Position numbers and translations under genes: made by a program. DNA of 64,000 nucleotides, taken from NCBI RefSeq assembly GCF_009727055.1, contig NC_052350.1, positions 20,124,365 to 20,188,364 of the forward strand, written 5' to 3'. The notes below the pieces were generated by a model. The model did not search any database. It saw only the letters and a list, made by a program, of their open reading frames with translations, and was not told where the DNA came from. Each line of letters begins with the position of its first letter. Position 1 is the first letter of the stretch. This document shows, piece by piece, positions 1,053 to 62,811 of this stretch. Source of the DNA: Benincasa hispida. Taxonomy: Eukaryota > Streptophyta > Magnoliopsida > Cucurbitales > Cucurbitaceae.

Positions 1053-3257
1053 GGTTCTCCCGGAGTCTCGTTGTTTTGTAAAGATACACATTGTTCAATG
1101 CATAAAATAAGTGTTATTTAATTCTCGCATTTACTCATATCCAATAAACAAAGCTCCGTGGTTATCTTATGTGAACTTAAGCATGTATATGTGATATACA
1201 AGTGGATCATGCCTTAAGTGATAACCTAAATCGGTCTGTAGTATAAGGATTAAGGTGGGATACCTGATCCTAGTGACACTACGGATACAACCCACTTTGT
1301 AGAGGTTTGCAAGTGTTGTAAACTACTACAGATGGTAGATCCTGACCATTCATGTGGAGACATTGAGCGGGGGTGTCCTATACAAAGAGTTTGTATAAGA
1401 CATGGACCACGAGATGACTAGACTTTATATATAATGTCGTTGATACTAGAGACTTGTATCTCACCTAAACGATCATAGGTAACACGACCTCAATCCTAAG
1501 TGTTTTATGAACTCTAGTCTTTGAGGGCGGTCCTTTGATTAGTATGGGTGTGAGTGGTCAAATTGTCAACTCAACATGCCTACCTTTTTAGGGACTTGTC
1601 TAATCTGGGAGCTGGGAATTCAATCCACAAGATAGAATTCACTTCTTTCCTAAAGTAGGGATAAGTAGAGAGATTGCTGCCTTAAGGGCTGATTCCGGGG
1701 CTTGAACATAGTAGCCACAACTTCTCTTTGAAAGAGGAGACTCAGTCATAGTAGGACTATGATTTATGTTCATTAGAGGGATCAGTGGTACTTAAGGAGA
1801 CAGATGTAACTACAGGGGCATAACGGTTATTGGGCCAACTGTACTTACGAGCGATCTGTGAAGGATTGTCACACTGCTGATTGGTTAAGATAGACCCATA
1901 ATATATCTATAGTGAGGAGAGTTCAGCTGTCGATCTTTAGTGAAGTGCCTGGCAGTTAACGGATGGTGGATCCTGTGACTAAAGAGTTTAGTTAGTTATT
2001 CACGTACTGTTGGAGCTTCGGATCATCAGGTCCATAAGGTCCCCTTGGTAGCTTGGATTCTATTGAGGATTAGTTCTTGGTGTTGGTTTGAAAAGTTCAA
2101 ATTGACAAAAGGTATATGATATAATCGGTATGATGTATAAGATACATCTAGTGAAGGATTGATGTAAATGAGATTTGCATTAAGTACCATGGAATAGAAA
2201 AATAACTATGGTTTATATGTTTCATGAGATGAAATATTAAAACTATAGGTTATAAATATAGTATGATAAGTGTTGTTATTCATTTATATTTATAAAAATA
2301 TTAATTATTAGATAATTAATACTTTTTTCTTTTAAATAACCAAAGTAGTGGGTGGATCATGGTAACCGTGAGTTTAAAAGGAAAGTGGTTTCCTATTTGA
2401 AAAGAGTTTTTACAAAATTTTGAAAAGGAATTTGAGTTTTCTCTCCGGTGAAAAAGAAACTCACGAAAGTCGTCAAGTAAATAAAGATTTACTAAACAAA
2501 CGACTGGGCAAGCTAAAACGATCATGCAGGTGCGAGCTAATGACTTCGTACAGTGTTTACTAAACGATCGCATAGCTTTGCTAGACGATCGCTGGCTCAA
2601 GGTAAACGTTCGTGTAGAGTTTGTACGTAAAGGACCAAGCTAAACGATAGAGCTAAACGATCGCATAGTTTTTGCTAGACGATCGCATAGTTTTATTCTA
2701 AACGATTGGGCATCACTATACGATAGATCTCGACTTCTCCCACTTGCCCAGTCTGTATACGCAATCGTTTCTTTCCTCCGTTCGTCTACCTCACACCAAG
2801 TTCGAACAGAGCCCAACCTCTTAGATTCTCCACCGAGAATACCAAGGACACCTTGTTTGTGGTGTCAGGACTCAACTCGACACCGTCGAGGTTTTCTGGA
2901 GGCCGTTCGTGTGTTTGTGGAAGCCATTCGTTGTGCGGAGGAGTTCGTGACCGAGGAGATTGTTAGGACGAGCACGAAGTGTTCGTGCTTATGTTCGTGC
3001 GGTGTTGCAATCGTTTAGATCGAGCGCTCGTGGTTGCTGTTGTTGATCAGAGTGTGCAACGGAGCGTGGAGACATTTCTGTCGATGTGTGTAGAGTTTGT
3101 CTCTTTGTACATTTTTTATTCATGCTGTAATTTCTGGAATTATTTGCATAACTGTTTATGTTTAAAGTCGACTGGAAATGTATTTTTGATTCATGATTAT
3201 AATTTGGAATAGTCTTGTTCCGCTGCTCACGGAAATCTCGAGTGTCGATTTCCTTTA
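1053..3257 (+). repeat. 5' LTR of Copia A
   Basis: It aligns along its length with 5056-7268. It ends GATTTCCTTTA just before the primer-binding site; the related Copia C LTR ends CCTTCA. The canonical TGTTGGG start seen in the 3' copy is missing or altered. A CGATCG array lies in its last third. Confidence 0.85.
2500..2715. repeat. CGATCG palindrome array in the A 5' LTR
   Basis: About ten spaced copies of a degenerate unit (A)CTAAACGATCGCATAG-like are present, four with an exact CGATCG. They lie roughly 550-750 bp before the LTR end. Several units show CG changed to TG or CA, as expected from methylation decay. Confidence 0.8.
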
Positions 3258-5055: not shown

Positions 5056-7268
5056 TGTTGGGATTGGTGTCCTAATTCTCCCGGAGTCTCGTTGTTTTAT
5101 AAAGATACACATTGTTCAATGAATAAAATAAGTGTTATTTAATTCTGGCATTTACTCATATCCAATAAACAAAGCTCCTTGGTTATCTTATGTGAACTTA
5201 AGCATGTATATGTGATATAAAAGTGGATCATGCCTTAAGTGATAACCTAAATCGGTCTGTAGTATGAAGATTAAGGTGGGATACCTGATCCTGCTGACAC
5301 TATGGATACGGCCCGCTTTGTAGAGGTTTGCAAGTGTTGTAAACTACTACAGATGGTAGATCCTGACCATTCATGTGGAGACATGGAGCGGGGGTATCCT
5401 ATACAAAGAGTTTGTATAAGACATGGACCACGAGATGACTAGACTCTATATATAACGCCGTTGATAGTAGAGACTTGCATCTCACCTAAATGACTATAGG
5501 TGACATGACCTCAATCCTGAGTGTTTTGTGAACTCCTGCCTTTGAGGGAGGTCCTTTGATTAGTATGGGTGAGAGTGGCCAGATTGTCAACTCAAAATAC
5601 CCACCTTTTTGGGGACTTGTTTGATCTGGGAGCTAGGAACTCAATCTACAAGATGGAATTCACTTCTTTCCCGAAGCAGGGATAAGTAGAGAGATTACTC
5701 CCTTAAGGGCTGATTCTGGGGCTTGAACATAGTGGCTGCAACTTCTCTTTGGAAGAAAAGACTCAGTCATAGTAGGACTATGATTTATGTTCATTATAGA
5801 AATCAGTGGTACTTAAGAAGACAGTTGTAACTACAGGGAAATAACGGTTATTGACTCAGCTGTACTTACAAGCGATCTGTGAAGGGTTGTCATACTGCTG
5901 ATTGGTTAAGATGGACACATAATATATATGTAGTGAGGAGAGTTTAGCTGTCGATCTTTAGTGGAGTGCCTGACAGTTAACGGATGGTGGATCCCGTGAC
6001 TAAAGAGTTTGGTCAGTTATTCACGTACCGTTGGAGCTTCGGATCTACAGGTCCATGAGGTCCCCTTGGTAGCTTGGATTCTATTGAGAATTAGTTCTTT
6101 GTGTTGATTTGAAATGTTCAAATTGACAAGAGCTATTTTAATTATATATGATATAATCGGTATGATGTATAAGATACATCTAGTGGAGGATTGATGTAAA
6201 TGAGATTTACATTAAGTACCATGGAATAGAAAAAGAACTATGGTTTATATGTTTCATGATATGAAATATTAAAACTATAGGTTATAAATTTAGTATGATA
6301 AGTTGGTTATCATTTCTATTTATAATAATATTAATTATTAGATAATTAATACTTTTTCTTTTAAATAACCAAAGTAGTGGGTGGTTATTGGATTATCGTA
6401 ACCGTGAGTTTAAAAGGAAAGTGGTTTCCTATTTTGAAAAGAGTTTTTACAAAAGTTTGAAAAGGAATTTGAGTTTTCTCTCTGGTGAAAAAGAAACTGA
6501 CGGAAGTCGTCAAGTAAATACAGATTTACTAAACAACGGCTGGGCGAGCTAAACAATCGTGCAGATGCGAGCTAAACGATCGTGCAGTGTTTACTAAACG
6601 ATCGCATAGCTTTGCTAGACGATCGCTGGTTTAAGGTAAACGATCATGTAGAGTCTGTATGCGACATACCGAGCTAAACGATCGCATAGTTTTTCCTAGA
6701 CGATTGCTTAGTTTTATTTAAACGATTGGACATCGACATATACGATAGGTCTCCGACTTCTCCCACTTGTCCAGTCATGTACGCGATCATTCTTTCCTCC
6801 GTTCGTCTGCCTCACACCAAGTCCAAACAGAGCCCACCCTCTGGATTCTCACACCGAAAATACCAAGGTCGCCTTGTTGGTGGTGTCAGACTCAACTCGA
6901 CACCGTCGAGGTTTTTTGGAGGCCTTTCGTGGTGCTGTGGAGTCCGTTCGATGTTGCGGAGGAGTTTGTGAATGAGGAGATCGTTGAGGACAAGTGCAAA
7001 GTGTTCGTGCGGTGTTGCGACCATGTAGATCGAGCGCTTGTTGTTGTTGTCATTCGATCAGAGTGCGCAACGAAGCGTGGAGACATTTCTGCCGATGTGT
7101 GTAGAGTTTGTCTCTTTGTACATTTGTTATTAATGCTGTAATTTCTGGAATTATTTGCATAACTGTTTATGTTTAAAGTCGACTGTAAATGTATTGTTGA
7201 TTCATGATTGTAATTTGGAATAGTCTTGTTCCACTACTCACGAAAATCTCGAGTGTCGATTTCCTTTA
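5056..7268 (+). repeat. 3' LTR of Copia A
   Basis: It starts TGTTGGGATTGG and ends TTTCCTTTA. It is about 2.2 kb long and similar throughout to 1053-3257, with scattered substitutions and small indels that suggest an old insertion. ACATC follows it and may be the target-site duplication. Confidence 0.88.
6540..6735. repeat. CGATCG palindrome array in the A 3' LTR
   Basis: This is the counterpart of 2500-2715. Several units read CTAAACGATCGCATAG or CTAAACGATCGTGCAG, four with exact CGATCG and the rest decayed. Confidence 0.8.
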
Positions 7269-9440: not shown

Positions 9441-9471
9441 TTGTCTTAATAATGCCTACAATATCATACGT

Positions 9472-12425: not shown

Positions 12426-12702
12426 CTTAGGCTTTATTTACTTGAGGTTTTAAGTTGAAAACATATAAGTGATGAAGTTTAGAAATGAGATTTTGCTACA
12501 ATGGCAGTTGAAAATCACTTAAAAATTGACATTCATGATATGGTGTTTTTCTTTTTTTCTTTTTCTTATTTTTTTGGGTTAAAAGTTCACATTGTACGTA
12601 TTTATTTCTACTAACATCATAGGCCTTGATTTCTTCTAGTGATATTACAAAAAATTTATAATATGTTTTTAATTTTAAATTTTGTATCCAATAGGTTCTT
12701 AA

Positions 12703-12816: not shown

Positions 12817-13492
12817 TGTTATACAGAAGTGAAAATAATTTCATTCAGTTACAGAATTAGTTACAAATCTAGCTACCCTTAAATACTTTGCATAACTAAT
12901 TTGTACAGCAAGAGAGAACAATTGTAATTGAGTGACTACACTTATCTTGAAGCAATCTTGAATAAAAAACTCCATCAGCTTCTCCGTGGACGTAGTCCTC
13001 CTTTGGCCGAACCACGTAAATGGTCGTGTTCTTCTTCTTCTTATCGTCTTCATCTATCGTATACCCCTGACCCACCGATCGTGTAGCTTTAGCAAACGAT
13101 CATCTAGCTTTTAGCCAATGATTGTTTACTTCTACAAGCCTTATCTTGTAGACGACTATCGTTTAGACGACCTCGTCTAGACGATCTTTAGTAAAGCCTT
13201 CATCGTCTAGACGACTCATGCCTTATCGGCTAGACGACCCCTTCTTTACCTTCCATTGCCTAGACGATCAAAGACTCCTCGCCTCTGCGAATTCCGGCAG
13301 CCTCCCGGTGTTCCTCTCTTTTCTGTTCTCTCGTTCTTTCTCTGCAAAAAGAAAAGAAAAGATTAGTCATTCGAAGGGCTTTTCCAGCAGAAGTTTAAAG
13401 TTATAATCTCAGCCATCAAAGTGTAAGGTCGAGATCGTTCATCACACGGATTGTACTTTCAGCACGCGTTTTTGTGTTTGTGTGAAACAACA
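12817..13492 (+). repeat. 5' LTR of Copia D
   Basis: The start is tentative at TGTTATACAG; the end lies just before the primer site. It shares a CCGTGGACGTAG ... TTGGCCGAACCACGTAA block with the Copia E LTR. It carries a CGATCG-type array. No second LTR is present. Confidence 0.6.
13070..13275. repeat. CGATCG/TCTAGACGA array in the D LTR
   Basis: Roughly ten units such as CCGATCGTGTAG, CGTCTAGACGATC and TTTAGACGACC are spaced about 15-25 bp. The consensus has drifted toward GTCTAGACGA, itself nearly palindromic. Confidence 0.65.
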
Positions 13493-21547: not shown

Positions 21548-21585
21548 CTGTCTCTTATACACATCTAGATGTGTATAAGAGACAG
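21548..21585. other. Nextera mate-pair junction adapter (artefact)
   Basis: The 38-bp inverted mosaic-end sequence replaces most of the RNase H domain, so the DNA across it is not contiguous in the genome. Confidence 0.98.
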
Positions 21586-21744: not shown

Positions 21745-21782
21745 CTGTCTCTTATACACATCTAGATGTGTATAAGAGACAG
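21745..21782. other. Nextera mate-pair junction adapter (artefact)
   Basis: Exact 38-bp adapter, 159 bp after the previous one. Confidence 0.98.
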
Positions 21783-24810: not shown

Positions 24811-24848
24811 CTGTCTCTTATACACATCTAGATGTGTATAAGAGACAG
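24811..24848. other. Nextera mate-pair junction adapter (artefact)
   Basis: Exact 38-bp inverted adapter inside the LTR. Confidence 0.98.
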
Positions 24849-32877: not shown

Positions 32878-34879
32878 TGAAGGAACTCTAAACATAGAGA
32901 ACCAATGAGCGGAAGCAGATAGTTCCAAATCCCATTGTGAAAGAATATGGGCAGTTACAATCTAACATACCAGTTATACATCAAATCTAAATTACAACAT
33001 GCTTCAAAAGGATAATACAAGAGATCGAGTAAACATACCCTTCAAGAACCTTTTCTTTTAGTACTTCCTCGATCCAACAACAAAGCGTCCTATAGCATGA
33101 ATGCCATACGAGCAAATCCAACAAACATCACACACTGGTAAATACTCGATCACAATCGAGTTAAACTTGATACTCGACTCTCGAATGCAAACTCGACACT
33201 ACCACGAGGCTACTTTGGTATTCTCGGTGTGAGAATCTAAGAGGTGTGGGCTCTTTATGGATTTGGTAGGGGCAAGAAGGAACTGGACGATCAAGTCATT
33301 GGGAGAATGAAGAAGTCTATCATATAGACTTGGGTACTCGATTGTTTAGCAGCGAGTAACTATCGTATAGGATACTCCTTCCTTGATCATTTTCTCTCTC
33401 AAAGCTATCGTGTAGCTTTTTCTTGCTGCACGTTCGATCATGAAAAAAATGAAAACGATTTTCATTTTATCCACCAGTTATCAAAAACTGATTACAACTT
33501 CCCACTAAGTCAATTATTAGGAGAAAAAACCGAAGTTCAATTATTTTATAATTGATTTAGTTATAAATAAATATAATAATTAATTTATCATATTATATTT
33601 ATAACCTATCGTTTTAATATCACATCATATGTAATATATAAACCATAGTTCTTTTTCTCCTTGATAGCATTTAATATAAATCATATTTATATTAATTCTT
33701 CCAATTAATGTATCTAATACATCAAATCAATTATATCACATATAATTGAATCAATTTAATTATATTATATATGATCAAATTCCCTTTTATTAATTTGAAC
33801 ATTTCAAACTAACCCAAAAACTAATTCTCAACATGAATCCATTGAGCCTATAGCTTGAAGCTCCAACGGTACGTAAATAATTGACTAAACTCTTTAATCA
33901 CGATATTCACCACCTGTTTAACTGTTGGGCACTCCACTAAAGACTCACAGCTGCACTCTTCGCACTACAGATATATTTCTATGTCCATTAGATATAAACA
34001 ATCAACAATATGATGACCCTTCAAAAATCACTCGTAAGTACAGTTGGGACAATTTACTGTTTTGCCCCTCTAACTCCTTAAGTACCATTGATTCCTCTAA
34101 TGAACAATACGTCATAGTCCCACTATTAGTAAACCCCTCTCGGGCAAAGAGAATGTGTGGTACGACATTGTTCAAGTCCTGGAATCAGCCTTTAAGGGAG
34201 CAATTTATCTACTTACCCATACTTTGGGAAATGAGTGAATTCCGTCTTGTGTAGCTGAGTTCCCAACTCCCTAATTAGATGAATCCCCAAAGTGGTAGGT
34301 TTGAGTCGGCGATCTGGTCACTTGCACCTCTACAAATCAAAGGACCTCCCTCATAGACAAGAGTTCCCAACTCAATCAGAATTAAGGTCATGTTATCTAT
34401 GGTCATCCTAGTGAAATGAAAGTCTCTATCATGAACGACGTTATATAACGAGACTAAACATTTCGTGGTCCAGTCTTATACAAACTTCTTTGTATAGGGC
34501 ATCCCCGCTCGCATGTCTAATACATGAATGGTCAGGATCAGACAATTTGTAGCACTTTACAACACTTATAACATCTACAAAGTGGGCCACACTCGTAGTA
34601 TCACCAAGATAAGGTTTCCCTCCTTTATCTATATACTACAGACCATTTAGGTTATCACTTAAAGCACGATCCACTTGAATGTCTCCACATACATGCCTAA
34701 GTTACAACAATAACTAGGGATCTTAGTTTATTGGTTTGTGGTTAATGTAACTACAATATCACATATTTCATAGACTGAAGTGAATAAAATATCTCATATT
34801 ATAAATCACAAAACTGTTTGTTCATACAGATGGTCACAAACGACAGGATCCTACGAGATTTAGGGCATCAACCTCAACA
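32878..34879 (-). mobile_element. Solo LTR S2
   Basis: On the minus strand it starts TGTTGAGGTTGATGCCC and ends GTTCCTTCA, about 2.0 kb, with no internal region. Flanks GTTAT (32873-32877) and GTAAT (34880-34884) are a one-mismatch target duplication. It lies inside the LINE. It resembles S3 and, more distantly, the Copia A/C LTR. A frame at 33925-34254 on the other strand is not a gene. Confidence 0.8.
33295..33430. repeat. Weak CGATCG/CGATTG array in S2
   Basis: There are a few loose units (CTCGATTGTTTAG, CTATCGTATAG, CTATCGTGTAG) and, at 33145-33205, several TCGA-centred motifs like those of Copia E. It is the most decayed of the arrays. Confidence 0.45.
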
Positions 34880-37374: not shown

Positions 37375-37479
37375 CAGACAATATGTTGATCTCGGTGCAC
37401 GCGGGTATTGTGAAAAAGGTAGTGTCATCGTTTAGAAAATCAGTGCCTATACAATAGCAAGTACACCGTTGCGCGTTAT

Positions 37480-37700
37480 TATCTAAACAATCGTTTACCT
37501 TTTTACTAAGCGATCGTTTAGCTCCCAGTATTTACTAAACGATCGTATAGACGATCACTTAGTTTTTCCTACGCGATCGTATTGGACGATCGTTCACCCT
37601 TTTCCTACAAGATCGTATAGACAATCATTTACCTTTTCCTACATGATCGTATAGAAGATCATTTACTTTTACTACACGATCGTATACTTCACCTAAATGA
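37480..37700. repeat. CGATCG palindrome array in S3
   Basis: About ten units such as CTAAACGATCGTATAG, CTACACGATCGTATA and TAAGCGATCGTTTAG lie at 20-25 bp spacing, five with exact CGATCG. Confidence 0.82.
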
Positions 37701-38060
37701 TCAAACATCCTGTCTATGTGATAGATGACCTCTTCTCCCACTTGCTTGATCGTTGTGTACAGTCACTCTTCCTCCTTCCCTCTACCAAATCCGAACAAAG
37801 CCCATACTTTGGATTCTCACTCTAAAAATACTGAGGACTCTAAGTGGTGTTATCTTCTCTGATTCCTTTTGTTCGAGTGATGACTGTTCGAGGTAGACGA
37901 TTGGGCTTCAGATTTGAGAAATTTTCATCTGGTATGATTTCTTGATCCCTTTAGTATTATGAAAGTATGTTTGAATGTATATGCGGTAATTCTGTCATAA
38001 TGAATTGGAAAGATTCGCTTTCGCTTGTAGGTACTCTTGAATAAGAGTTCCTTCACTGAG

Positions 38061-39734: not shown

Positions 39735-40328
39735 AGATAGGAAACTAATCTTTTAAAATGTATTTATTGATTAAGTGTGATGACACGATCATATAACATA
39801 ACAGCTAAACGATGGACTTGTACTTTTTTAAACGATGAACGTCAATCAACAACTACACGATTGCTTACTCTTGCTACGCGATTACTTACAAACACTAAAC
39901 GATCGTTTACATTCACTATGCGATTTCTTACAAACTCTACACGATCGGTTACTAACACTACGCGATTGCTTACACATACTATGTGATCGCTTACTACAAC
40001 TACACGATCGTTGAGGCTCTTCTACACGATCATGGAGGCTCTTCTACACAATCACTTAGTAGATGAAGTAGGTGATGAATGACACTCCTAGACTGTTTCT
40101 ACACGAAAGACTAACCCGAACTCCCACCCTCGAGAGATCACTTTCCTCACTCAAGATATTCAATCTTCAATGCCTTCTCTTTCTGTTTCTTTCTTCTTTT
40201 AAACCCGAACTTCTCCCAACAGAATTGAAAGTAGATCCCCAATTTCTTTAACCGACTCAATCGCCAATTTTCCCATATTACCTTTATTCTTCCTTCTTTG
40301 ATATTGTAGTATAATTGCAGGCCTATCA
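39735..40328 (-). repeat. 3' LTR of Gypsy F
   Basis: Minus-strand start TGATAGGCC and end TTTCCTATCT. It matches 56550-57108 over about 560-590 bp. About half of it is a CGATCG-type array. Confidence 0.88.
39778..40050. repeat. CGATCG array in the F 3' LTR
   Basis: About thirteen units of a ~22-bp minisatellite read like CACTACGCGATTGCTTACAA. A perfect 14-bp palindrome (TAAACGATCGTTTA) lies at 39896-39909. CG decay is common. Confidence 0.85.
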
Positions 40329-41220
40329 TTACCTCAAGGTAAAATTCTTGGAACTGATTCTGAAAATCATCCAACACCTTCCAAGTCACCTCATGCTCTG
40401 GTAGCCCTTTCCATTTCACCAAAACTTCACATCCTCGATGAGACAACCGAGGTCAATAGCTTAATACAACCTTCGGTTCAGGTAGCCAAGTATGATTTTC
40501 ATTGACTAAAGGATCTACAAATGATTTTCCTTCTGGCTGTCCAATCACCTTTTTGAGCTGCGACACATGAAAAATTGGATAGATCGACACCGTTGATGGA
40601 AGCTCCAATTTGTAAGCTACCAATCCCACCCTGTCAATAACTTGATATGGCCCATGATACTTGGGAGATAATTTCATATACCGTTTTTACCGAACTAAGA
40701 TTTGGCGGTACGGACGCAACTTCAGCCATACCCATTCCCCGACTTGAAATTCTTTATCCCTTCACTTCCTATCTATAAATTTCTTCATTTTCTCTTGAGG
40801 CACCCTCAAATGCTCCTTAAGTACTCGTAGTGCAGCATCCCTGACACACATCTATTGGTCCAATATTGCATTTGCAATGCAATCATCCCTATAATAGATA
40901 AACATTGGAGGTGGACGTCCATACACAATCCGAAAAGGGAGAAAAGCCAGTGGAGGCATTATATGTAGTATTATACCAGTATTTCGCCCAATGCAACCAG
41001 TTAATCCATTCTTTAGGATGCTCCCCACAGAAGCACCTCAAGTACATTTCTACACTGTGGTTTACCACTTCTGTCTGACCATCCGACTGAGGGTGATAGA
41101 CTGTGCTGTGATGGAGCTTGGTACCTGATAGCCGGAACAACTCCTGCTAGAAGTGACTCACAAACACTTTGTCTTGATCCGAGACAATAGACTTCGGCAC
41201 CCCGTGCAGCCTTACTATTT
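40329..41220 (-). pseudogene. Gypsy F integrase C-terminus and chromodomain
   Basis: On the minus strand the DDE core tail (KLHHSTVYHPQSDGQTEVVN, keeping the glutamate, then WAKYWYNTTYNASTGFSPF) is followed after frame breaks by the GPY/F module ([20 protein letters not shown], then [12 protein letters not shown]). A chromodomain follows (CEVLVKWKGLPEHEVTWKV). Chromodomains direct such elements to heterochromatin. The end of the chromodomain frame runs into the LTR, as in related elements. A TAG replaces an expected tryptophan near 41155. Confidence 0.88.
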
Positions 41221-44254: not shown

Positions 44255-46500
44255 TGAAGGAAATCGAAATTGAGATTTCCATAAGCAACGGAAGCAAGAC
44301 CATTCAAAATTACAATCATGAATCAACAAATCATTTACAGTCGACTTCAAAACAAGCGGTTATACAATGTACAGAGAAATTACAGCATCAACCTCAAATG
44401 TATAGAAGGAAAATTGTACTAACAATGGCAAAAGCGTCTCCATGCTCTGATGCACAGTCTGATCGAACAACAACAACCATGAACACCCGATCTACATGAC
44501 CGCAACACCGCACGAACACAACACGAACACTTCACGCTCGTCCTCAACGATCTCCTCGCTCACGAACTTCTTTGCAACAGCGAACGGCTTCCGCAACACC
44601 ACGAACGGCCTCCGAAAAACCTCGACAGTGTCGAGTTGAGTGTGACACCACCAACAAGCCCACCTTGGTATTCTCAGTGTGAGAATCCAAAGGGTGTGCT
44701 CTGTTCAGACTTGGTGTGAGGCAGACGAACGGAGGAAAGAACGATCACGTACACAATTGGGCAAATGGAAAAAGTCGGAGACCTATCGTATAGGTCGATG
44801 CCCAATCGTTTAGATAAAACTATGCGATCGTCTAGCAAAAGAAATGCGATCGTTTAGCTCTATCATTTAGCTCGGTCGATTCTATACAATCGTTTACCTT
44901 GGGCCAGTGATCGTCTAGCAAAGCTATGCGATCATTTAGTAAACACTGCACGATCGTTTAGCTAGAACCTGTACAATCGTTTAGCTCGCCCAGTCATCAT
45001 TTAGTAAATCTGTATTTACTTGATGATTTCCGTGAGTTTTTTTCACCTGAGAGAAAACTCAAATTCTTTTTCAAACTTTTGTGAAAACTTCTGTAAAATC
45101 TATTTTTCAAAATAGGAAACCGATTTTCTTTTAAACTCACGGCTACCATGATCAATAACTACCCACTACTATGGTTATTTAAAAGAAAAAGTATTAATTA
45201 TCTAATAATTAATATTATTATAAACATAAATGATAGCCAACTTATCATACTATATTGATAACCTATAGTTTTAATATTTCATCTCGTGAAATATATAAAC
45301 CATAATTCTTTTCCTATTCCATGGTACTTAATGTAAATCTCATTCACATCAATCCTTCACTACATGTATCTTATACATCATACCGATTATATCATATATA
45401 ATCAAAATACTTCTTGTCAATTTGAACATTTCAAATCAACACCAAGAACTGATCCTTCAACATGAATCCAAGCTACTATGGGGACCTCATGGACCTGTAG
45501 ATCCGAAGCTCCAACGGTATGTGAATAATTGACTAAACTCTTTAGTCACGAGATCCACCATCCGTTAACTGCCAGGCACTCCACTAAAGGACCGACAGCC
45601 GAACTCTCTTCACAAAAAGATATATTATGTGTCCATCTTAACCAATGAGCAGTGCGACAACCCTTCACAGATCGCTCGTAAGTACAGCTGGGCCAATAAC
45701 CGTTATGCCTCTATAGTTACATCTATTTCCTTAAGTACCACTGATCCCTCTAATGAACATAAATCATAGTCCTACTATGACTGAGTCTTTTCTTCCAAAG
45801 AGAAAGCTGTGGCCACTATGTTCAAGCCCCAGAATCAGCCTTTAAGGGAGCAATCTCTCTACTTATCCCTGCTTCGGGAAAGGAGTGAATTCCATATTGT
45901 GGATTGAGTTCCCAGATCCTAGATTAGACAAGTCCCCAAAAACGTAGGCATGTTGAGTTGGCAATCTGGCCACTCTCACCCATACTAATCAAAGGACCCG
46001 CCCTCAAAGGCAGGAGTTCACAAAACACTCAAGATTGAAGTCGTGTCACCTATGGTCGTTTAGGTGAGATGCAAGTCTCTAGTATCAACGGTGTTATATA
46101 CAGAGTCTAGTCATCTCGTGGTCCAGGTCTTATACAAACTCTTTGTATAGGACACCCTCGCTCCACGTCTCCACATAAATGGTCAGAATCTACCATTTGT
46201 AGTAGTTTACAACACATTGCAAACCTCTATAAAGTGGGCCATATCTGTATATTCACAAGATCAGGTATCCCACCATAATCCTTATACTACAGACCGATTT
46301 AGGTTATCACTTAAGGCATGATCCACTTATAATCACATATACATGCTTAAGTTCACATAAGATAACCAAGGAGCTTTGTTTATTGGATAGAGTAAAATGC
46401 CAGAAATTAAATAATACTTATTTTAATTCATTGAACAAATGAGTATCTTTACATGAGACTCTGGGAGAATTAGGACCACCAATCCCATAATTTCCCAACA
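44255..46500 (-). repeat. 3' LTR of Copia C
   Basis: Minus-strand start TGTTGGGAAATTATGGG and end GATTTCCTTCA, about 2.25 kb, matching the Copia A LTRs. The ~130 bp that precede the LTR in A, including the polypurine tract, are deleted here. Confidence 0.9.
44815..45000. repeat. CGATCG array in the C 3' LTR
   Basis: Eight to ten units (such as ATGCGATCGTTTAGCTC and GCACGATCGTTTAGC), three with exact CGATCG, lie in the position matching the arrays of Copia A. Confidence 0.82.
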
Positions 46501-49760: not shown

Positions 49761-51544
49761 TTTTTAAAAGCTTTAAACGAAAATACTAATGAGTTGCTGA
49801 AAAGAAAAACACATTGACCTACGTTAGGTTTTAAACAAATACCCGTTGTAAAACAAAAAAACATCCAATAAGGTTTTAGCAAAAGTAACATGAACCCCGT
49901 TTGACATTTAGTTTCGCAATGACACTTCAAAGGTTTAGGACAAAAGTTGTCGAAGGGAGGTTAGTTATCCCTCCTCTGAATTGAGAAGATCTAAATCAGT
50001 CATTAATACCAGAACAACTCTTGCTCCTATAACGACTAGCCATCATTGATTTGACCAAGAGATCATTAACTTAATTAACAATCACACTTTCCCAAAAGGC
50101 CAATCCGAAGGGAAAAAATCCGATTAGGGCAAAACCTAAAGCGACCCTATCCATTTCTGGAGTTCACCTTAATATTGATCAACTGCACAAAACCCATCCG
50201 AAGGGGGCTGCATCGAAGGTGACACGAGGGTGTACAGAATGATTTTACGGTGTGAACCAATGACAGAGACCATAGTATGTGTTGGCGAATACCCTTCACC
50301 CACTTACTATAAATACTCTCTCCGTCCACCTTGATATTGACTCATGCAAACACCATCCAAAGGGGGATGCATCCTGAGGCATCTCGAGGCCAAACATGGA
50401 TCTCACGGTGTGAACATACAGGGAGAAACCTGAGTGGAATCATAGACATATCTGATATGCCTTCTATTCCCATTGAGTACTTTATAACCTAGGTTTTAGT
50501 TTATTTAGAAAAAACACGGCTAAGGATTTTAACTAAGTGATTTTTAGGTTTTCCCAAGAGTAACATTTACCTTGGATAGTTGAACAACTTTTGATCATCA
50601 TCCATTAAACTCTTTAACAGAGTCTTTGACCAAAACGTCGTATGCTTGTTGAAAATCTATCTAATTCACCTTTCCAGGTAGGTTCCGAAGTAGGGGTATT
50701 ATGTTTCTGTCAACTTAAGAACCCCAGACAAGCCAGAACCCACCTTAGACCAAAGGTCCCTTATAGATAAGTTTACAATAAATTTAATTTTTTATTCTAA
50801 CCAATTTAATCCCATTAAACCGATTTTAAATGATTAATCTAGGTTACTAAACTCTTTAGAACCATTTGAACTTAGGTCTATCTCAATCCAATTCTAAAAC
50901 CCTTTTAAAAAACTTGAGTTCACCCGAAGTTCGCATGCAACTATGAATTATTGATTTTAGGTCTAATTTCCTTTATAACACTTATAAACGGAAACAACCA
51001 CCATAATGCGAAGCTAACACATGCAAGGCATTCATAACGATTATAAACGGCCTAAGTGTCATCCTTAATGCATTGTCCACTCATTGTTATTTCTTTTATA
51101 TAACACTTATACAAAACCGCAATGAAACAAGCAAAACATGCTTCCATTCACCCTTAGACTATAACATTTATAATAAAAGGATGATGCATGATAACGCTCA
51201 ATGCATGCAAAATATAACTCTTATATTTCATGATGCATGCGCATGCTTTCAAGTAATTTCTTCATGCAATATTATAATATTTATAATACATGATACATGA
51301 GTAATTGTACAACCTAAGTTGGGTTTTTAACTATATGAAAAATACTTTGATATATAAGAACCATACATCACATGTATAAGCAATAAAAGTTGATGAACCG
51401 GTTAAAATTACCTTTAAACACAAAAGGGAAAGCAAACTATTACAAAGACAAGGAGTCTCCGGTTCAAACAGGTGAATCGGGTCTTGAACCGCTCGAAAAA
51501 GCATCGCTTCATCTAACGATAAAACAAACCCTTCGTTTTATCGC
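49761..51544 (-). other. Leader-like non-coding region of Copia C
   Basis: No gene is visible. Blocks around 50150-50440 (including CTTCACCCACTTACTAT and CTCACGGTGTGAAC) and 50700-50760 (GTCAACTTAAG..CCCC) recur in the Copia H leader at about 60640-60890 and 61165-61190. The two elements therefore share an old non-coding leader. Gag, expected between this leader and protease, is missing. Confidence 0.65.
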
Positions 51545-51645
51545 TTACCAGCGCTCCCAGAGTTAAACGATCATTTAGCATTATTATACGATCGTCTAGA
51601 AAAACCCAAACGATCGTTTAGCCATTACAACATGATTGTGTACCT
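51545..51645. repeat. CGATCG array in the C leader, part 1
   Basis: Units such as TATACGATCGTCTAG and CCAAACGATCGTTTAGCC; continues at 53578 after the solo LTR S1. Confidence 0.78.
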
Positions 51646-51649
51646 TTAC

Positions 51650-53572
51650 TGTAACAACCCAAATTTGTACACATACACTACAGGAAATTAAATGTCAAAT
51701 GTTACGACAAAATTTTATTTAAAGGGGTGGTAAATGTAATACCTTAACCTTAATTTAGAAAGCAGGAAAACAAATAAAATATATAATTAAGAATGAAAAA
51801 TATATAAACTTAATAGGAAAATCGGGTGGAAATTTAGAATTGGAAAAAAATAAGAAATTTATTAATTATCCAAAAATAATGAATAAGGGGGCAGAATCAG
51901 GGAGGATTATTAGAAGTTGGACCGCAACTAATTCAGGAGACCAAAGGGCAGTAGATAACTTTTGGTTTTGGGCACTGCTCATTGGAAGAATTGGAGGTGA
52001 ATTAATTGCCCATATACTCTTAAAATTTGAAAAAAGTTAAAAGGGGAAATGGAATCCACAAGCAATGAAGGCAACTCACACCGTGAAAACTAGCGAGATT
52101 GGAGAAAAAATTGGAGAGAGCGAGAGTGGAGAGAAAATTGGAGAAAGCGAGATTCTCAGCGAGACAATAGGAGAGAGCGGGAGGAGAGTGAGAGCAAGAG
52201 TCACGAGAGCCAAACCAGCGAGAAATCTGGAGAAGAGTGAGATTTATGAGAACAGAAAGAGCGACATTTGGACAGAAGCATGGATTATGCGTTGAGTTTG
52301 GCCACGATCTTATAGATTATACATGGAAAACCCTAAAAATTGAATACAAACAAAGGTTAAAGATTTAGGGCAAACGTTAACCAAACTTAGGTGTCTTATT
52401 AAGAGAAATAATTAAACCTAAGTAATTTTAAAGAAGACACATTTGTAGGATGAGTTATCACACTGAGAAGAGCTGAAAACCACTATAAATAGGACCTTTT
52501 TCCTGAAGATTTAACCATTTCTCAAACAAATCTCAGTAACAAAAGAATCGTGTGAAAGATAAGTGTTGGTGCTTGCCCAAAATTTCCTTCTAGTTAAAGA
52601 GGGAAAGCTCTACTGATCAAACCATAAGGAATAATAAGGAATAATTAGGATCGCAGTCAAGGTAAGTAGTTATCTCACCCTCTTTAATGTTTTCATGGTA
52701 GTGTACCTTTAATATGTTGCATAATTATGTTATTGTTATGTTGCATTACATGTTAAAATACGTTTATCGACAAGGGACCCCATGCATTATGTTTGTTCAT
52801 AAGATTAAATTTTAATTAAGATAAAGGTTATGCTTCTAGGGCTAGTAGGCATGTATGGTTGCACGCCTCTAGACCCAATTCTATGTCAAGATTATTTATT
52901 AGGGCTAGCAGGGCATGTATGGTTGCACCCCTCTAGACCCAATTCTATGTCAAGATTTATGCTAGGGACTAAAACAAGGTATGTATGGTTGCACCCCTAG
53001 TCCAATCTTACGTTTATGTTAATGGTTGATGTTGGATGCGACTCTGGCCCTACTAACTGCATAACCCGCTAATTATCAGATGGGTTAGTTTCCCGCTTAA
53101 GTCCTCATCTTTCTATCAGGGCGGAAGAAATTTACGTTAGAAGCATAACGACCACCACATGTTGTTATTATGTTTTTCGTCCCAATCATATGTTTTCAGA
53201 ATATGTTGCATGTAATCCATTTGGTCACAACCCTAGTGAGAAACTACTTACTGGGTATATTATATACTCATCCTATTTTTATAAGACTTTGTAGGTAAGA
53301 ACACAACATAGGTGGCAAGAACTAGACGTCGGCTCAATGGCCAACCATCAAACTCACTATTATAAGGCATATGCATTTTGGTATCACTACGCTAGTGTTT
53401 TATGGATCCTGGTGTTTTGTAAAATAAACTTTTTATAGTTTTCTACCTAATTAATAAAATTTTAGATATGTTTCTTTGAGATTTTTGCCAAAAACTCATC
53501 TCATGATAAGAAAAGTCTAAGTATGCATGTCGTAGCGGTCGGACCATAATATGTAAGGATCCGGTCGTTATA
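51650..53572 (+). mobile_element. Solo LTR S1
   Basis: It starts TGTAACAACC and ends GGTCGTTATA, a near-perfect inverted repeat (last base pair TA, not CA). It is 1923 bp long and flanked by perfect TTTAC duplications (51645-51649 and 53573-53577). It has a TATA box near 52486 (CTATAAATAGG) and a 63-bp tandem repeat. There is no retroviral coding. The short frame at 52065-52295 is built from a GAGA-rich repeat and is not called. The termini resemble those of large Gypsy LTRs. Confidence 0.92.
52836..53015 (+). repeat. 63-bp tandem repeat in S1
   Basis: Three units start at 52836, 52899 and 52962, each with AGGGCTAG / GGACTA, GCATGTATGGTTGCAC, CCTCTAGACCCAATT and CTATGTCAAGAT. The third is degenerate. 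Confidence 0.85.
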
Positions 53573-53577
53573 TTTAC

Positions 53578-54170
53578 TAAGCGATGAGGCCTGAAGTACA
53601 CGATCGCTTAGCGTGCTCCACATGACGTCCGCCTTTCGCGATCGTCTAAGCGACTACGATGCTGCAAAGCACCATCGCTTAAGCGATCGCTTGCTAGCGT
53701 CTTCGTACCGCATACGTGCGATCGCATAGGTAGTAACGAAGCGATGAAGCTTGCTAACTACACGATCGTCTAGTGCCACGCCTTCTACTAAACGACGAGC
53801 ATCGCATGATCCCACTACAAATCGCCTAACTCTAGTGCCTACGCGGTCGGGAAACCAAAAAATGCCACACAATATGGGTAAACGATTTTTACCCCATCGC
53901 TTAGCATTAGTTAAACGATCGTTTAGAAAAATAATACACGATTGTCAAAAAAAAATCTAAACGATCAGTTAGTAAAATCCCTACGATCGTTTACCTGAGG
54001 CTACATGATCAGGTCAACGTTGATCTTCTTCTTCGTTGAGAACTGCATCGCCAAGCACCGAAGCTTCATCACGAACGACTCGACGAACTCGAACTTTTCG
54101 AATTACAAACTCGATTGCAAAGTTAATTTTACCCAAAAACACAGGTAATAATACCAATTAAAGCATCAAA
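53578..54170 (-). repeat. CGATCG array in the C leader, part 2
   Basis: This is the densest array of the window, with about seven exact CGATCG. It includes a perfect 12-bp palindrome AAGCGATCGCTT (53681-53692) and a 14-bp palindrome TAAACGATCGTTTA (53912-53925). After about 54010 the sequence is plain leader with only a damaged remnant of the primer site (minus-strand TTGGTATTATTACC near 54150). Confidence 0.82.
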
Positions 54171-55841
54171 TGAGAGAAGTTAAGAGACCTATCCTAAGGT
54201 CGATGCCAATTGTTTTAGATAAAACTATGCGATCGTTTAGCTCTATCATTCAGCTTGGTCGATTCTACACGATCGCTTACCTTGGGCCAGCGATGTCGTC
54301 TACAAAAAGCTAATGTGATCGTTTAGTAAACACTGCATGATTGTTTAGCTTTAGAACCTGCACGATCGTTTAGGCTCGCTAGTCATCGTTTAGTAAATCT
54401 GTATTTACCTGACGACTTCCGTGAGTTTCTTTTCACCTGAGAAAAAACTCAAATTCTTTTTCAAACTTTTGTAAAAAACTTTTGTAAAAACTCTTTTTCA
54501 AAAATAGGAAACCGATTTTTCTTTAAACTCATGGTTACCATGATCAATAAACCACCCACTACTTTGATTATTTAAATGAAATAATTAATTATCTAATAAT
54601 TAATATTATATAAACATAAATGATAACCAACTTATCATACTATATTGATAACCTATAGTTTTAATATTTCATCTTGTGAAATATAAACCATAGTTCTTTT
54701 CCTATTTCATGGTACTTAATGTAAATCTCATTTACATACATCATACCGATTATATCATATATAATCAAAATACCTCTTGTCAATTTGAACATTTCAAATC
54801 AACACCAAGAACTGATCCTTCAACATGAATCCAAGCTACCAAGGGGACCTCATGGACCTGTAAATCCGAAGCTCCAACGGTACGTGAATAACTGACTAAA
54901 CTCTTTAGTTGCGGGATCCACCATCTATTAATTGCCAGGCACTCCACTAAAGACCGATAGTTGAACTCTTCTCACTCCAGATATATTATGTGTCCATCTT
55001 AACCAATGAGCAGTGCGACAACCCTTCACAGATCGCTCGTAAGTATAGATGGGCCAATAATCGTTATGCCCCTGTAATTACATCTTCCTTAAGTACCACT
55101 GCTCCCTCTAATGAACATAAATCATAGTCCTACTATGACTGAATCTTTTCTTCCAAAGAGAAGCTGTGGCCACCATGTTCAAGCCAAGAAATCAACCCTT
55201 AAGGGAGCAATTGCTCTACTTATTATGCTTCGGGAAAGGAGTGAATTCCATATTGTGGATTGAGTTCCCAGCTCCCAGATTAGACAAATCCTCAAAAAGT
55301 AGGCATGTTGAGTTGGCAATCTGGCCACTCTCACCCATATTAATCAAAGAACCGCCCTCAAAGGCAGGAGTTCACAAAACACTTAGGATTGAGGTCGTGT
55401 CACCTATGGTCGTTTAGGTGATATGAAAGTCTCTAGTATCAACGGCGTTATATACAGAGTTTAGTCATCTCGTGGTCCAGGTCTTATACAAATTCTTTGT
55501 ATAGGAAACCCCCTTTCTACATCTCCACACGAATGGTCAAGATCTACCATTTGTAGTAGTTTGCAATACTTGCAAACCTCTACAAAGCGGGCCGTATCCA
55601 TAGTGTCACCAGGATCAGGTATCCCACCTTAATTCTTATAGTACAGACCGATTTAGGTTATCACTTAAGACATGATCCACTTGTATATCACATATACATG
55701 CTTAAGCTCACATACCAAGGATCCTTGTTTATTGGATATGAGTAAATGCCAGAATTAAATAACACTTATTTTATTCATTGAATAATGTGTATCTTTACAA
55801 AACAACAAGACTTCGAGAGAATTAGGACACCAATCCCAACA
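54171..55841 (-). repeat. 5' LTR of Copia C, U5 end missing
   Basis: It matches the 3' LTR from TGTTGGGATTGG (55841) down to about the GACCTATC..AAGGTC segment, then similarity ends. Roughly 500 bp of the LTR end are missing next to the damaged primer site. Its array at about 54190-54395 has three exact CGATCG. Confidence 0.85.
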
Positions 55842-56549: not shown

Positions 56550-57108
56550 TAATAGGAAACTAAACCTTTAAAATGCATTTATTGATTAAGTGTGATGACA
56601 CGATCGTATAACATAACAGCTAAATGATAGACTTTCACTTTATTAAACGATGAACGTCAATCAACAACTACATGATCGCTTACTCTTGCTACGCAATCGC
56701 TTACAGACACTAAACAATCATTTATATTCACTACATGATCATTTATAAACTCTACACAGTCGCTTACTAACACTACGCGATTGCTTACATACACTATGTG
56801 ATAGCTTACCGCAACTACACGATCGCTTAGTAGATGAAGTAGGCGATGAATGGCACTCCTCGACGGTTTCTACACGATAGACTAACCCAAACTCCCACCC
56901 TCGAGAGATCATTTCCCTCACTTAAGATATTCAATCTTCAATGTCTTCCCTTTCCATTTCTTTATTCTTTTATCCTGAACTTCTCCCAATAGAATTGAAA
57001 GTAGTTTAGCTGTGGTCCCTAACCTCTTTAACCGACTCAACCACCAATTTTCCCATAATACCTCTATTCTTCCTTCTTTGATATTGCAATATAATTGGAG
57101 GCCTATCA
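56550..57108 (-). repeat. 5' LTR of Gypsy F
   Basis: It matches 39735-40328, with a shorter array. Its CGATCG units at 56595-56830 (such as CTACACGATCGCTTAG) match those of the 3' copy. CATAC follows at 57109. Confidence 0.88.
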
Positions 57109-57113
57109 CATAC

Positions 57114-60235: not shown

Positions 60236-62811
60236 TCTGAAATTATAAATAAAATCTATAAGTGAATTGCTTTTAAATCCAATCAAGTTTTAGCAAAATG
60301 ATAATGTACCCATAATCATTATGTTTGCAACGATAGATAAGTGATTTAGAATAATTGCTACCAAAAGGTAGTCAAGAATTCCTTCATAAAAGCAAGACAA
60401 TTCTTGACCAAATACTATCTCCAGAATAACTCATATTCCGATAGTCATTTAGTTATCGCTTTCAGTCAAGATCTTTACTAACACTTAGTAATTCTTGTAA
60501 GTGTAGACTCGCCATTTTCAGATCTTACAGAACGGTATGAGTATGCCTCCGAAATAGAAGACAAATACCTAAGACAAAACTATAAGACCCTATTCATTTC
60601 ACTGAAGCCTGGATTGTTCTGAATCCTATGTTACAACCCTCCGAGGGGATCGCCGTGGTTAACGACTAGCTAGTGCCCCCTAAAAAAGACAGCAGGCGCA
60701 ACATAGGAATCTCACGGTTCAAACTAATGGAGGAGACCGTAGGACAATATTGACACATTTCCTTCACCCACTTACTATGAACGACTTCCCTCATTCACCT
60801 TGTTATTAACCCATGTAAACACTTTTCGAATGGAGCAGTCGAGGTAAAATCGACACGAAGCCGAGCATGGACCTCACGGTGTGAACTCTTGAGGATGTGA
60901 GAGCTAATAACTTTTAATCTCCCACTAAAGTGTTCTAAATATTTGGGTAAATTTTATACTTAGGTTCTTTTCGGCTAATAAAAACAACCCTGAGTCTAGA
61001 TGGTTTTATCTAAGTATAACATTTATAAATGGATTTAAACCTATGATGTCTAGGTAATAAACCATTTTTATTACCTCACACCGCTCAGGAAAGCTTATAA
61101 AATCGGTTACCAATGTTCAATAATTCGGCCATAATCCCTAGGTAAGAGGTGTTCCGTAGATCGTCAACTTAAGTACCCCCAGCCTTTGACAGGATTATAT
61201 ATCGATTGAGTTTGTAACCCTAGTTTTACAAGTTTAACGACCTATTTTAACTATTAAAACAAGTGGTTAACCTAAGTGAGCATGCAACTGATTTTTGTTA
61301 TGGATTTTAAACGTCTAACCCAATTTTATAACAGCTTACAAAATTTTAGACATGCTAAACATCCATGACAAACAACAAAGGTGTTTAATATCTAATATAA
61401 CTATTATATTAAATAAAAGAAACCCTAACATGCATACTATATATTATAACATTTTATAACATACTTTCAATGCATGTAACATGCTTCCTATAGTGGAATT
61501 TTACATCTATATGGCATACTATATGCACATACAAGATTTATTTAATTATAATATACAACACATGCATAAATAATTAAACACTAACTGATACGGCTTTAGT
61601 TTTGGCGTAAACAAGCAAACAAAAAACTAATTATTACAACACAACTTCTGAACCGCTTCTGAACCGCTTGAACCACTCAAAAACATACTAAAAAAGCTTG
61701 AGCCGAACCCGAACCGTCTGAACCAGACAAGCCAAGTCTGAACCAGACTAGAAAAGACCATTTGAGGCTAAACCAGACTGGAACACAAGAGAACCGGTCA
61801 AACCAGCAGCTCTAGCTCTATGCTCAAAATCTCGCTAAGTCTTATCGTTTAGCAATGACGACCATCGTCATACGTTTTCCTGATCATTTAGTGTTTGCGT
61901 GATCGTTTCGCAACTATCGCATAGCTGCTTACCAAACTACACGATCGTGTAATGTCTTCCTTATATCGCATAATGTCATCGTCTAGTGTCGAAGGACGCT
62001 ACACGATCGCTTAGTGTTCAACACTATCTTGTAGCTCCATCGTTTAGCACCAGACATTTCCTACATGATCGCTTAGCGCCATTGTCTAAAGCTTGAAGTT
62101 GATCGTTTAGCGCGCGCACAAGGTAAGTGATCGCTTAGTGCTATCGCATAGCTCTCGACGCATTGCTCAGCTGTCGCATGTAAGTAAACGATCGTGTAGT
62201 GCTATCGCTTTGTTCTTCAATGCATCGCTTAGCTATCGCATAGAGGTAAATGATTGTGTAGCGCTATCGCATAGCATCTTCAACGCATATTTAACTCCCA
62301 CCCAAAGCTACACGATCGTGTAGTGCTGTCGTATAGCAATACAACACATCACTTAGCTTCCGTAGGTACATGATTGTCTAGTGCACAACACCTCAACAAT
62401 CTAGCGAATGAGACCGCAAATGGATGGAAATTCTCCACTTAATGGCCCAAAGCTACATGATCATTTAGTTTTTCTTCACATCGTCTAACACATGAAGTTA
62501 AATGATCGTTTATCTACTGAAGCTCAACGGCGATATGAACAGAGGCTGATTTTCTGAAATCTGCAACTCGGCCCCTTCGCTTGTTTCTTCAAATTACAGC
62601 TTAATTTCAACTCTAATGACTATAAATAAATTACAGACTCTTGGGAGCACATATAAGCTCATCAAGCAAGAGCCAATTACAAATTTAATTAAGAAATCAA
62701 AGAGAAATTAAAAGCCAAAACTCAAATAACCATATCATTACAGTAGTTTCATATTACTTATATAAAATACCCACCAAACCAAAATTAAATCGAATTAAAT
62801 GCTTATAGGAT
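60236..62811 (-). other. Long non-coding leader of Copia H
   Basis: This 2.6-kb stretch between primer site and gag has no gene. It holds, from the gag side, blocks shared with Copia C (60640-60890 and 61165-61190), an AT-rich middle, a cluster of GAACCG / AACCAGAC repeats (61645-61800), then the large CGATCG array and ~290 bp of ordinary sequence to the primer site. Confidence 0.75.
61845..62520. repeat. CGATCG array in the H leader
   Basis: This is the longest array, with roughly twenty-five units over 675 bp (such as CTACACGATCGTGTAGTG, TGATCGCTTAGTGCTATCGC). Four have exact CGATCG and many have CATAG/CTTAG ends. The unit has drifted toward ATCGCATAGC alternating with CGATCGTGTAG. Confidence 0.82.

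What the first reader, a model, noticed from the sequence alone, without database searches (positions are those of the whole stretch)
39778..40050. CGATCG palindrome arrays shared by unrelated retrotransposon families
Arrays of a short unit around CGATCG (best form CTAAACGATCGTTTAG, itself a 16-bp palindrome) occur at 2500-2715, 6540-6735, 13070-13275, 37480-37700, 39778-40050, 44815-45000, 51545-51645, 53578-54010, 54190-54395, 56595-56830 and 61845-62520. By hand I count about forty exact CGATCG, nearly all inside these arrays; assuming one-third GC and no CG depletion, chance gives about six in 64 kb. The hosts are Copia A/C, Copia D, Copia H, solo LTR S3 and a Gypsy chromovirus, whose proteins and other LTR sequence are unrelated. 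Many units show CG decayed to TG or CA, so the motif was more uniform before. Possible explanations: a host factor site captured repeatedly, RNA self-pairing elements for genome dimerisation (units downstream of TATA boxes would be in the RNA), or sequence exchange between elements in nests.
Basis: partly seen in the sequence, partly recalled or inferred. Interest (0 to 1): 0.88.

Follow-up and report, generated by a model that had tools for sequence, protein, structure and literature searches.

The report
Shared palindrome arrays in plant retrotransposons
A 16-letter palindrome built on CGATCG recurs in short arrays near the start of several mobile-element families in what is probably the wax gourd genome, including two families that are not related, and looks like a repeated docking site that these elements needed while they were active.

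Summary
CGATCG occurs 43 times in the window against about 4 expected; 38 of 43 lie in the listed arrays. In the 912.9-Mb genome CTAAACGATCGTTTAG occurs 2449 times, against 0.1-0.4 expected and 0 for a palindrome of the same composition.

The host list needs correction. The eleven arrays reduce to six contexts: Copia A/C LTR, Copia D LTR (same position), Copia C leader and Copia H leader (between PBS and gag), Copia F, and a chromovirus LTR. The 'solo LTR S3' arrays are the Copia C leader array, split by S3.

In the chromovirus arrays the 16-bp motif is conserved between units (73-76%) while the spacers are not (36-38%); between the two LTRs this reverses (82% against 90%). So the motif was constrained before insertion and not after. 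Inner arm positions do not consistently covary, which weakens the RNA-hairpin idea.

Best reading: arrays of sites for a dimeric DNA-binding factor, a variant of the palindromic repeated motifs of Sirevirus LTRs (PMC2829016). Distribution is patchy: 0 of 16 other chromodomain elements examined carry arrays. Capture between elements also occurs.

The parts
2500..2725 (+). Array in Copia A LTR copy 1 (LTR about 1055-3258; PBS 3260)
6530..6745 (+). Same LTR array, second Copia A LTR copy (about 5076-7269)
44790..45000 (-). Same LTR array, Copia C 3' LTR (46497-44257)
54180..54400 (-). Same LTR array, Copia C 5' LTR (starts about 55841; homology ends just after the array, so apparently shortened)
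53570..54030 (-). Copia C leader array, first part (between a degenerate PBS-like stretch near 54160 and gag)
   Evidence: same context in 13 of 34 sampled genomic clusters
51530..51650 (-). Copia C leader array, second part, cut from the first by solo LTR S3
51650..53572 (-). Solo LTR S3, inserted into the leader array; flanked by GTAAA on both sides; carries no array itself
37470..37710 (+). Copia D LTR array, downstream of TATAAATA at 37366
33180..33450 (-). Decayed, half-site-rich remnant of the same array in a second, inverted D-type LTR
61840..62540 (-). Copia H leader array, about 290 bp after PBS 62812; mostly 58-62 bp higher-order period
13040..13290 (+). Copia F array upstream of PBS-like site 13496; weak, one exact core
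39770..40066 (-). Chromovirus 3' LTR array (LTR about 40315-39737), mostly 21-22 bp spacing or its double
   Evidence: chromodomain 40150-40452
56590..56890 (-). Chromovirus 5' LTR array (LTR about 57108-56545; PBS 56535), 21-bp unit

Best explanation
The arrays are clustered binding sites for a DNA-binding protein that reads the nearly two-fold symmetric 16-bp site CTANRCGATCGYNTAG, most simply as a homodimer, with successive sites often about two helical turns apart. They lie late in the LTR, apparently just inside the transcription unit, or in the leader between PBS and gag, and would act on the DNA to switch on the element's promoter or keep it open against silencing. Each family enlarged its own array by local tandem duplication while selection held the site; after insertion selection stopped and the CpGs decayed. 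Shown: the motif, its enrichment, near-symmetry, spacing, positions, the conservation contrast in one family and the CpG decay. Inferred: that a protein binds, that it is host-encoded, and that the effect is activation or anti-silencing.
For: Enrichment: window 43 against 4; genome 2449 and 592 exact 16-mers against 0.06-0.35 expected, a palindrome of equal composition 0, reversed controls 0. Motif columns 73-76% identical between units against 36-38% for spacers, register set by period; 28 and 116 of 20349 five-column subsets are as low. Between the two LTR copies of the same element motif 82%, spacer 90%, six row pairs: constraint ended at insertion. Purine at position 5 and pyrimidine at 12 mirror each other without consistent covariation, as two independent half-sites would. 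Adjacent spacing peaks at 21-23 bp (19 of 48, one copy per family; also the LTR, C-leader and chromovirus sets). Hosts include Copia (RVT_2) and Gypsy (RVT_1 plus chromodomain) elements; the chromovirus LTR matches the Copia LTRs only array to array. CpG o/e 1.43-2.39 in four arrays against 0.42-0.77 in the flanks of three of them.
Against: No binding protein, ChIP, small-RNA, methylation or expression data. The conservation contrast would also arise if units were copied by a process that favours the core; it rests on one family (8 and 7 units), and rows that did not keep the 21-bp register were left out. The site is not fully symmetric: position 4 is mostly A, 13 is mixed, and some arrays, H above all, are rich in half-sites on one strand. 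21-22 bp spacing may be only a duplication length: several trial periods fit nearly as well, and H spacing is mostly 58-62. Not universal: 0 of 16 other chromodomain elements, none in Gypsy B or Copia G LTRs or the H LTR. In the C leader pair 4-13 does pair more than shuffles (11 of 2000 reach it), and in the chromovirus pair 5-12 (46 of 2000).
Confidence: 0.55

Rival explanations
1. Palindromic arrays act in the RNA: each unit can fold into a stem with a self-complementary GAUC loop, and the array promotes genome dimerisation or packaging.
For: Arrays lie downstream of a TATA-like box in Copia D or after the PBS, so they are probably in the RNA; CTAAACGATCGTTTAG is a perfect palindrome; 7 of 8 folded array pieces fold better than shuffles (z -1.9 to -5.2); C leader positions 4-13 and chromovirus positions 5-12 pair more often than shuffled (11 and 46 of 2000).
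Against: Inner arm pairs do not covary in the window (13 against 17.6 expected; 33 against 32.7), and LTR units pair less than chance at 4-13 (24 against 33.4). One chromovirus array piece folds no better than shuffles (z -0.37). No common fold. No Rfam match at gathering threshold.
Confidence: 0.12
2. Arrays are mobile cargo: they passed between elements by template switching, nesting or capture, and grew by slippage, with no function.
For: L055 carries a long array (36 cores counting decayed ones) next to clear chromovirus-LTR start and pre-array sequence, and L056 (31 cores) next to a degenerate LTR-like start, within DNA-transposon-like sequence; L057 has a further array (24 cores) in an unknown host; patchy presence among families; tandem structure.
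Against: Pure slippage and neutral decay predict equal conservation of motif and spacer; observed 73-76% against 36-38%. Units cluster by context (nearest neighbour in same context 22.6 of 49 against 8.3 shuffled), so recent exchange between the sampled families is not evident. Two separate positions within one Copia element.
Confidence: 0.25
3. The site is a target of host silencing (a CpG-rich recognised repeat or siRNA source) rather than of an activator.
For: Strong CpG decay suggests methylation after insertion. In maize Sireviruses palindrome clusters are small-RNA hotspots (Bousios 2016, as reported in passages of PMC10760457, and PMC5311732).
Against: Selection on the element would be expected to remove, not maintain and multiply, a pure silencing target; the conservation contrast points to benefit before insertion.
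Confidence: 0.08

Closest known systems
Repeated motif (RM) of Sirevirus LTRs (Bousios 2010, PMC2829016; passages seen) and maize Sirevirus LTR palindromes (Bousios 2016, not held; known here only through passages of PMC10760457 and PMC5311732)
   Same: Many copies of a palindromic, CpG-rich motif in plant LTRs; distant elements share nearly the same motif; extra copies outside the LTR; one palindrome is reported as the most abundant structured motif in both Copia and Helitron elements of maize (PMC10760457).
   Different: Core is CGATCG inside CTA..TAG, not CGG-CCG (the Tnd-1 motif ACAATCGATTGT in that paper lacks it too); the array lies downstream of a TATA-like box in Copia D, not upstream; the second site is the PBS-gag leader, not the 5' side of env; one motif spans Copia and a Gypsy chromovirus.
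Su(Hw) site cluster of the Drosophila gypsy insulator (PMC2374998; passages seen)
   Same: Twelve copies of one host-protein site in about 340 bp of an LTR retrotransposon 5' untranslated region; host sites are mostly isolated.
   Different: Plant; palindromic CpG-rich site; also in LTRs and in several families; no insulator protein or activity known.
VANC target motifs of Arabidopsis VANDAL transposons (PMC5735166 passages; PMC10398659 abstract)
   Same: Short motif multiplied by tandem repetition in non-coding parts of a transposon, evolving fast; motif density matters.
   Different: VANDAL encode the binding protein (and are DNA transposons, recalled); no such gene was seen here; the VANC21 motif YAGTATTAY is not a palindrome and is family-specific.
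Stress-responsive tandem boxes of plant LTRs such as Tnt1 (recalled; PMC2829016 mentions arrays of two or three motifs)
   Same: Tandem cis-elements in an LTR.
   Different: Few copies; family-specific (recalled).

Membership tests
Sirevirus RM | Palindromic motif in high copy in the LTR | tested here: met
   (LTR contexts)
Sirevirus RM | CGG-CCG core | tested here: not met
   core is CGATCG
Sirevirus RM | Located upstream of the TATA box | tested here: inconclusive
   Copia D: TATAAATA 37366, array from 37483, so downstream. In 12 of 15 sampled LTR arrays a TATA-like word lies within 320 bp upstream, in 1 of 15 downstream; of 8 window LTR arrays 2 have one upstream, none downstream. Upstream DNA is AT-rich and there are no transcription-start data
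Sirevirus RM | CpG-island-like composition | tested here: met
   CpG o/e 1.43-2.39 in four arrays, 0.42-0.77 in three flanks
Sirevirus RM | Host element is a Sirevirus | tested here: not met
   The chromovirus host has RVT_1 and a chromodomain, so it is Gypsy; the lineage of the Copia hosts was not placed by phylogeny
gypsy-type Su(Hw) insulator | Cluster of about 12 sites in the 5' untranslated region | tested here: met
   Leader arrays: 13 (H) and 10 + 4 (C) cores counting decayed forms; PBS upstream
gypsy-type Su(Hw) insulator | Bound by Su(Hw), blocks enhancers | not testable with these tools
   no binding or reporter data
VANC-type anti-silencing system | Element encodes the motif-binding anti-silencing protein | tested here: inconclusive
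   No stop-free piece of 85 aa or more lies in the Copia H leader 61840-60290; no dedicated search
retroviral-type dimerisation signal | Stem maintained by compensatory changes, palindromic loop | tested here: inconclusive
   No covariation of the two inner pairs in the window; in the larger set 2 of 8 inner-pair tests show an excess and one a deficit

The most novel reading that the evidence does not exclude
One genome has a shared cis-code: unrelated LTR retrotransposons (Copia and Gypsy), at LTR and leader positions, have converged on dense arrays of the same dimer site downstream of the promoter, read by one host factor that acts as a plant counterpart of the gypsy/Su(Hw) insulator or of VANC anti-silencing and was used in trans by several families during the expansion that enlarged the genome.
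Probability: 0.25. Interest if true: 0.85.

Novelty: new variant of a known kind. Interest (0 to 1): 0.62.

Why it matters
If a single host factor reads this site, thousands of retrotransposon copies of a large, Copia-rich cucurbit genome would share one regulatory handle, and finding that factor could explain a burst of expansion and make anti-silencing or insulation in a plant retrotransposon directly testable. Even if the arrays are only cargo, they show CpG-rich palindromic arrays spreading between retrotransposon superfamilies and into DNA-transposon-like sequence.

Tried and rejected
Rejected: eleven independent arrays (six contexts, of which A/C and D LTR are homologous). Rejected: S3 as a host. 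Considered and dropped: one consistent orientation on the sense strand. It looked strong in raw 7-mer counts, which count four copies of one array, and between-context array matches by BLAST were nearly all in the same orientation; but leave-one-context-out scores favour sense in 5 of 6 contexts only weakly outside A/C and F (three units) and not in H, and the all-sense assignment ranks 10th of 32. Considered and dropped: helical phasing, since trial periods 7, 8, 10, 10.5, 11 and 12 all fit because 21-22 dominates. No use: IMG/VR (2 stretches matched a peptide pattern, none confirmed; 18 stretches with the 15-base pattern TAARCGATCGTGTAG, most CGATCG in any 400 bp: 4 in L002 and 3 in L014, both GC-rich, otherwise at most 2), GTDB genomes (9 stretches matched a peptide pattern, none confirmed), Rfam, PMC10578108 on enod40 (passages). 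The protein-family scan covered 10 of the stop-free pieces listed. Paper searches used: 10 of 10, seen as listings; no title or abstract start there names CGATCG arrays in cucurbit LTRs, and the library holds open-licence PMC papers only. PMC9456015 on cucurbit LTR elements holds none of palindrom, tandem repeat, cis-element or motif. Not obtained: a genome-wide count of CTANNCGATCGNNTAG.

Rows left out: one search used 8 and 7 in-register rows; the rows at the array ends that do not keep the 21-bp register were dropped (seen). One search used 26 sampled arrays and 9 window intervals; six sampled clusters (L026:4813, L032:7984, three in L040, L042:4858) and two further window copies of the A/C array were left out. 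L019-L022 are the same sites as L023-L026 and were not counted again.

Full report
Observation. CGATCG occurs 43 times in 64 kb; a first-order Markov model expects 3.98, and 60 simulated windows gave a mean of 4.0, a maximum of 8 and no cluster of three, against seven clusters here. Among 23 CpG-containing palindromic 6-mers CGATCG is first in the window (43, next 19) and in 200 kb of hit loci, which were chosen by the motif (150, next 53), and ties for first in 18 kb of random loci (5).

Hosts. Self-comparison and reading of the sequence regroup the arrays. 1055-3258 and 5076-7269 are two LTR copies (89% alike); 46497-44257 and 55841-54184 are LTRs of the same family on the other strand (87%). 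D-type LTRs (36022 onward; 34867 downward, inverted) are 71-78% similar to these and carry the array between the same two homologous blocks; the inverted D copy has only a decayed remnant. Copia H (LTRs about 58874-57100 and from beyond 63999 to 62825; aligned part 89% alike) shares LTR sequence with them at 66-71%, but has no array in its LTR (0 exact and 4 decayed cores in 57100-58874); its array is in the leader, about 290 bp after the PBS at 62812. Copia C also has a leader array, cut in two by solo LTR S3 (TATAACGACC...GGGTTGTTACA, GTAAA on both sides). The chromovirus (RVT_1; chromodomain 25.5 bits against cut-off 25.1) has it in both LTRs (80.5% alike). Copia F has a weak one. The chromovirus LTR matches the Copia LTRs only array to array. 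Window controls without arrays: Gypsy B LTRs, Copia G LTRs, S3, the H LTR, and five internal regions; Copia G 3' LTR has one exact core. So the 'unrelated families' are the chromovirus, probably Copia F, and one Copia clade that has two array positions.

Genome-wide. The held genome is 912,946,352 bp. That matches the 913-Mb wax gourd assembly (Benincasa hispida; PMC6856369 passages), and the best named protein relatives of a Copia RT piece are melon; the species is an inference. CTAAACGATCGTTTAG occurs 2449 times, GTAAGCGATCGTGTAG 592 times (291 + 301); reversed controls 0; composition predicts 0.35 and 0.21, a Markov model 0.14 and 0.06; the equally composed palindrome CTAAATCGCGATTTAG occurs 0 times. 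Twenty 10-kb loci around early hits on contig C1 were fetched (about 50 distinct sites were listed): 135 of 150 CGATCG are in clusters and 15 single. Of 35 clusters, 34 match known contexts: 17 LTR, 13 C-type leader (one of them, L040:4931, with LTR sequence on its upstream side), 4 H-type leader; six of the 34 rest on one flank or a separate match only; three arrays were cut into two clusters each. The remaining one (L032:7984) is two cores in pol. Seven of the loci were scanned for a PBS; in four of them five leader arrays have one 272-495 bp upstream, while the leader array of L023 has none upstream. Of 14 fetched sites of the second 16-mer, 8 are Copia LTRs (L063 with only two cores), 3 are chromovirus LTRs at other places (L059, L062, L066), and 3 are long arrays elsewhere. 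Twelve random 1.5-kb stretches held 5 CGATCG; two of the twelve (L045, L052) contain such arrays, a small sample. Against generality: 0 of 16 stretches downstream of the 16 best chromodomain matches (150 were listed, of 1813 candidates) carry an array or resemble this chromovirus LTR; the same criterion passed 2 of 12 random stretches, both with arrays, and 0 of 20 array-free window stretches. Those 16 look like other chromoviruses, so the array marks particular families.

Anatomy of the motif. From 249 units: C-T-A-A/C-A/G-C-G-A-T-C-G-T/C-N-T-A-G, flanks T-rich in LTR and C-leader units. Detection used the core and the outer CTA/TAG, so only positions 4, 5, 12 and 13 are unbiased: position 5 is mostly a purine and 12 mostly a pyrimidine; 4 is mostly A while 13 is mixed. 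Units are more alike within than between contexts, so each family expanded its own.

Constraint. In the chromovirus arrays the register can be set by period alone. Between units of one array the 16 motif columns are 73% (5' LTR, 8 rows) and 76% (3' LTR, 7 rows) identical, the five spacer columns 36% and 38%; 28 and 116 of 20349 column subsets are as low; among 21 rotations the motif frame ranks second and first. Between the two LTRs, identical when the element inserted, six matching rows are 82% (motif) and 90% (spacer) identical. So units with nearly random spacers kept the motif before insertion, and afterwards the motif decayed at least as fast as the spacer, as CpG decay predicts. This is the main evidence for function; it rests on one family and few rows, and end rows out of register were left out.

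Mechanism. A site with mirrored base preferences but no consistent covariation between halves is what a dimeric DNA-binding protein would select. A hairpin would need covariation: positions 4-13 and 5-12 show none in the window and mixed results in the larger set: deficit at 4-13 in LTR units, excess at 4-13 in C-leader units (11 of 2000 shuffles reach it) and at 5-12 in chromovirus units (46 of 2000) (shuffles ignore relatedness). RNA folding z-scores of eight array pieces were -2.6, -2.8, -3.7, -0.4, -2.1, -1.9, -1.9 and -5.2 without a shared fold. The Copia D array begins about 118 bp after TATAAATA; 12 of 15 sampled LTR arrays have a TATA-like word within 320 bp upstream against 1 of 15 downstream, and 2 of 8 window arrays against 0, though the upstream DNA is AT-rich; leader arrays follow the PBS. 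So the arrays are probably transcribed, and the leader position recalls the Su(Hw) cluster in the 5' untranslated region of gypsy (PMC2374998).

Exchange. L055 has about 20 bases of chromovirus LTR start (19 of 20 as in L066) fused to about 25 identical bases of the pre-array sequence of L066 and a 36-core array (decayed cores counted), inside sequence with ACTTGACA/TGTCAAGT repeats; L056 shares that DNA at 91% over 224 bp and has a CACTACTATAAAA word. I read this as capture by a CACTA-like DNA transposon (label recalled, not tested). L057 has 24 cores in a host I could not name. Arrays can thus move between elements, which offers a route for a Copia and a Gypsy family to come to share one.

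Known kinds. Palindromic, CpG-rich repeated motifs in plant LTRs are known from Sireviruses (PMC2829016, passages), where distant elements share nearly one motif, and one palindrome is reported in both Copia and Helitron elements of maize (PMC10760457). This finding is therefore a variant of a known kind: different core, apparently downstream position, leader location, and a Gypsy host. Ten searches of open-licence papers, seen as listings, showed no report of it.

Noticed in passing
window 4411-4448, 4553-4590, 21548-21585, 21745-21782, 24811-24848: Five perfect inverted pairs of the 19-base transposase mosaic end (recalled as the Nextera junction adaptor; expected 0 by chance). These look like unremoved mate-pair adaptors: the assembly is chimeric or gap-filled there, so the short interior of Copia A (3260-5076) may not be real.
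   Followed up: partly
window 51650-53572: Solo LTR with GTAAA flanks inserted within a leader array.
   Followed up: yes
L055, L056 (G000:C1:9750200-9751599, 12251900-12253299): Chromovirus-LTR-like fragment with a 36- and a 31-core array (decayed cores counted) inside DNA-transposon-like sequence; apparent capture and amplification.
   Followed up: partly
L057 (G000:C1:13789800-13791199): 24-core array in a host that matches none of the window contexts.
   Followed up: no
window 61640-61830 and 51440-51510, minus strand: Directly after the leader arrays of Copia H and C lies sequence rich in GGTTC/CGGTTCA words (read), perhaps a second leader motif.
   Followed up: no
window 42046-42222: Perfect 88-89 bp tandem duplication in the chromovirus internal region, possibly an assembly artefact.
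   Followed up: no
window 9470-12515: AT-rich block of many weakly alike direct repeats of about 80-475 bp, not analysed.
   Followed up: no
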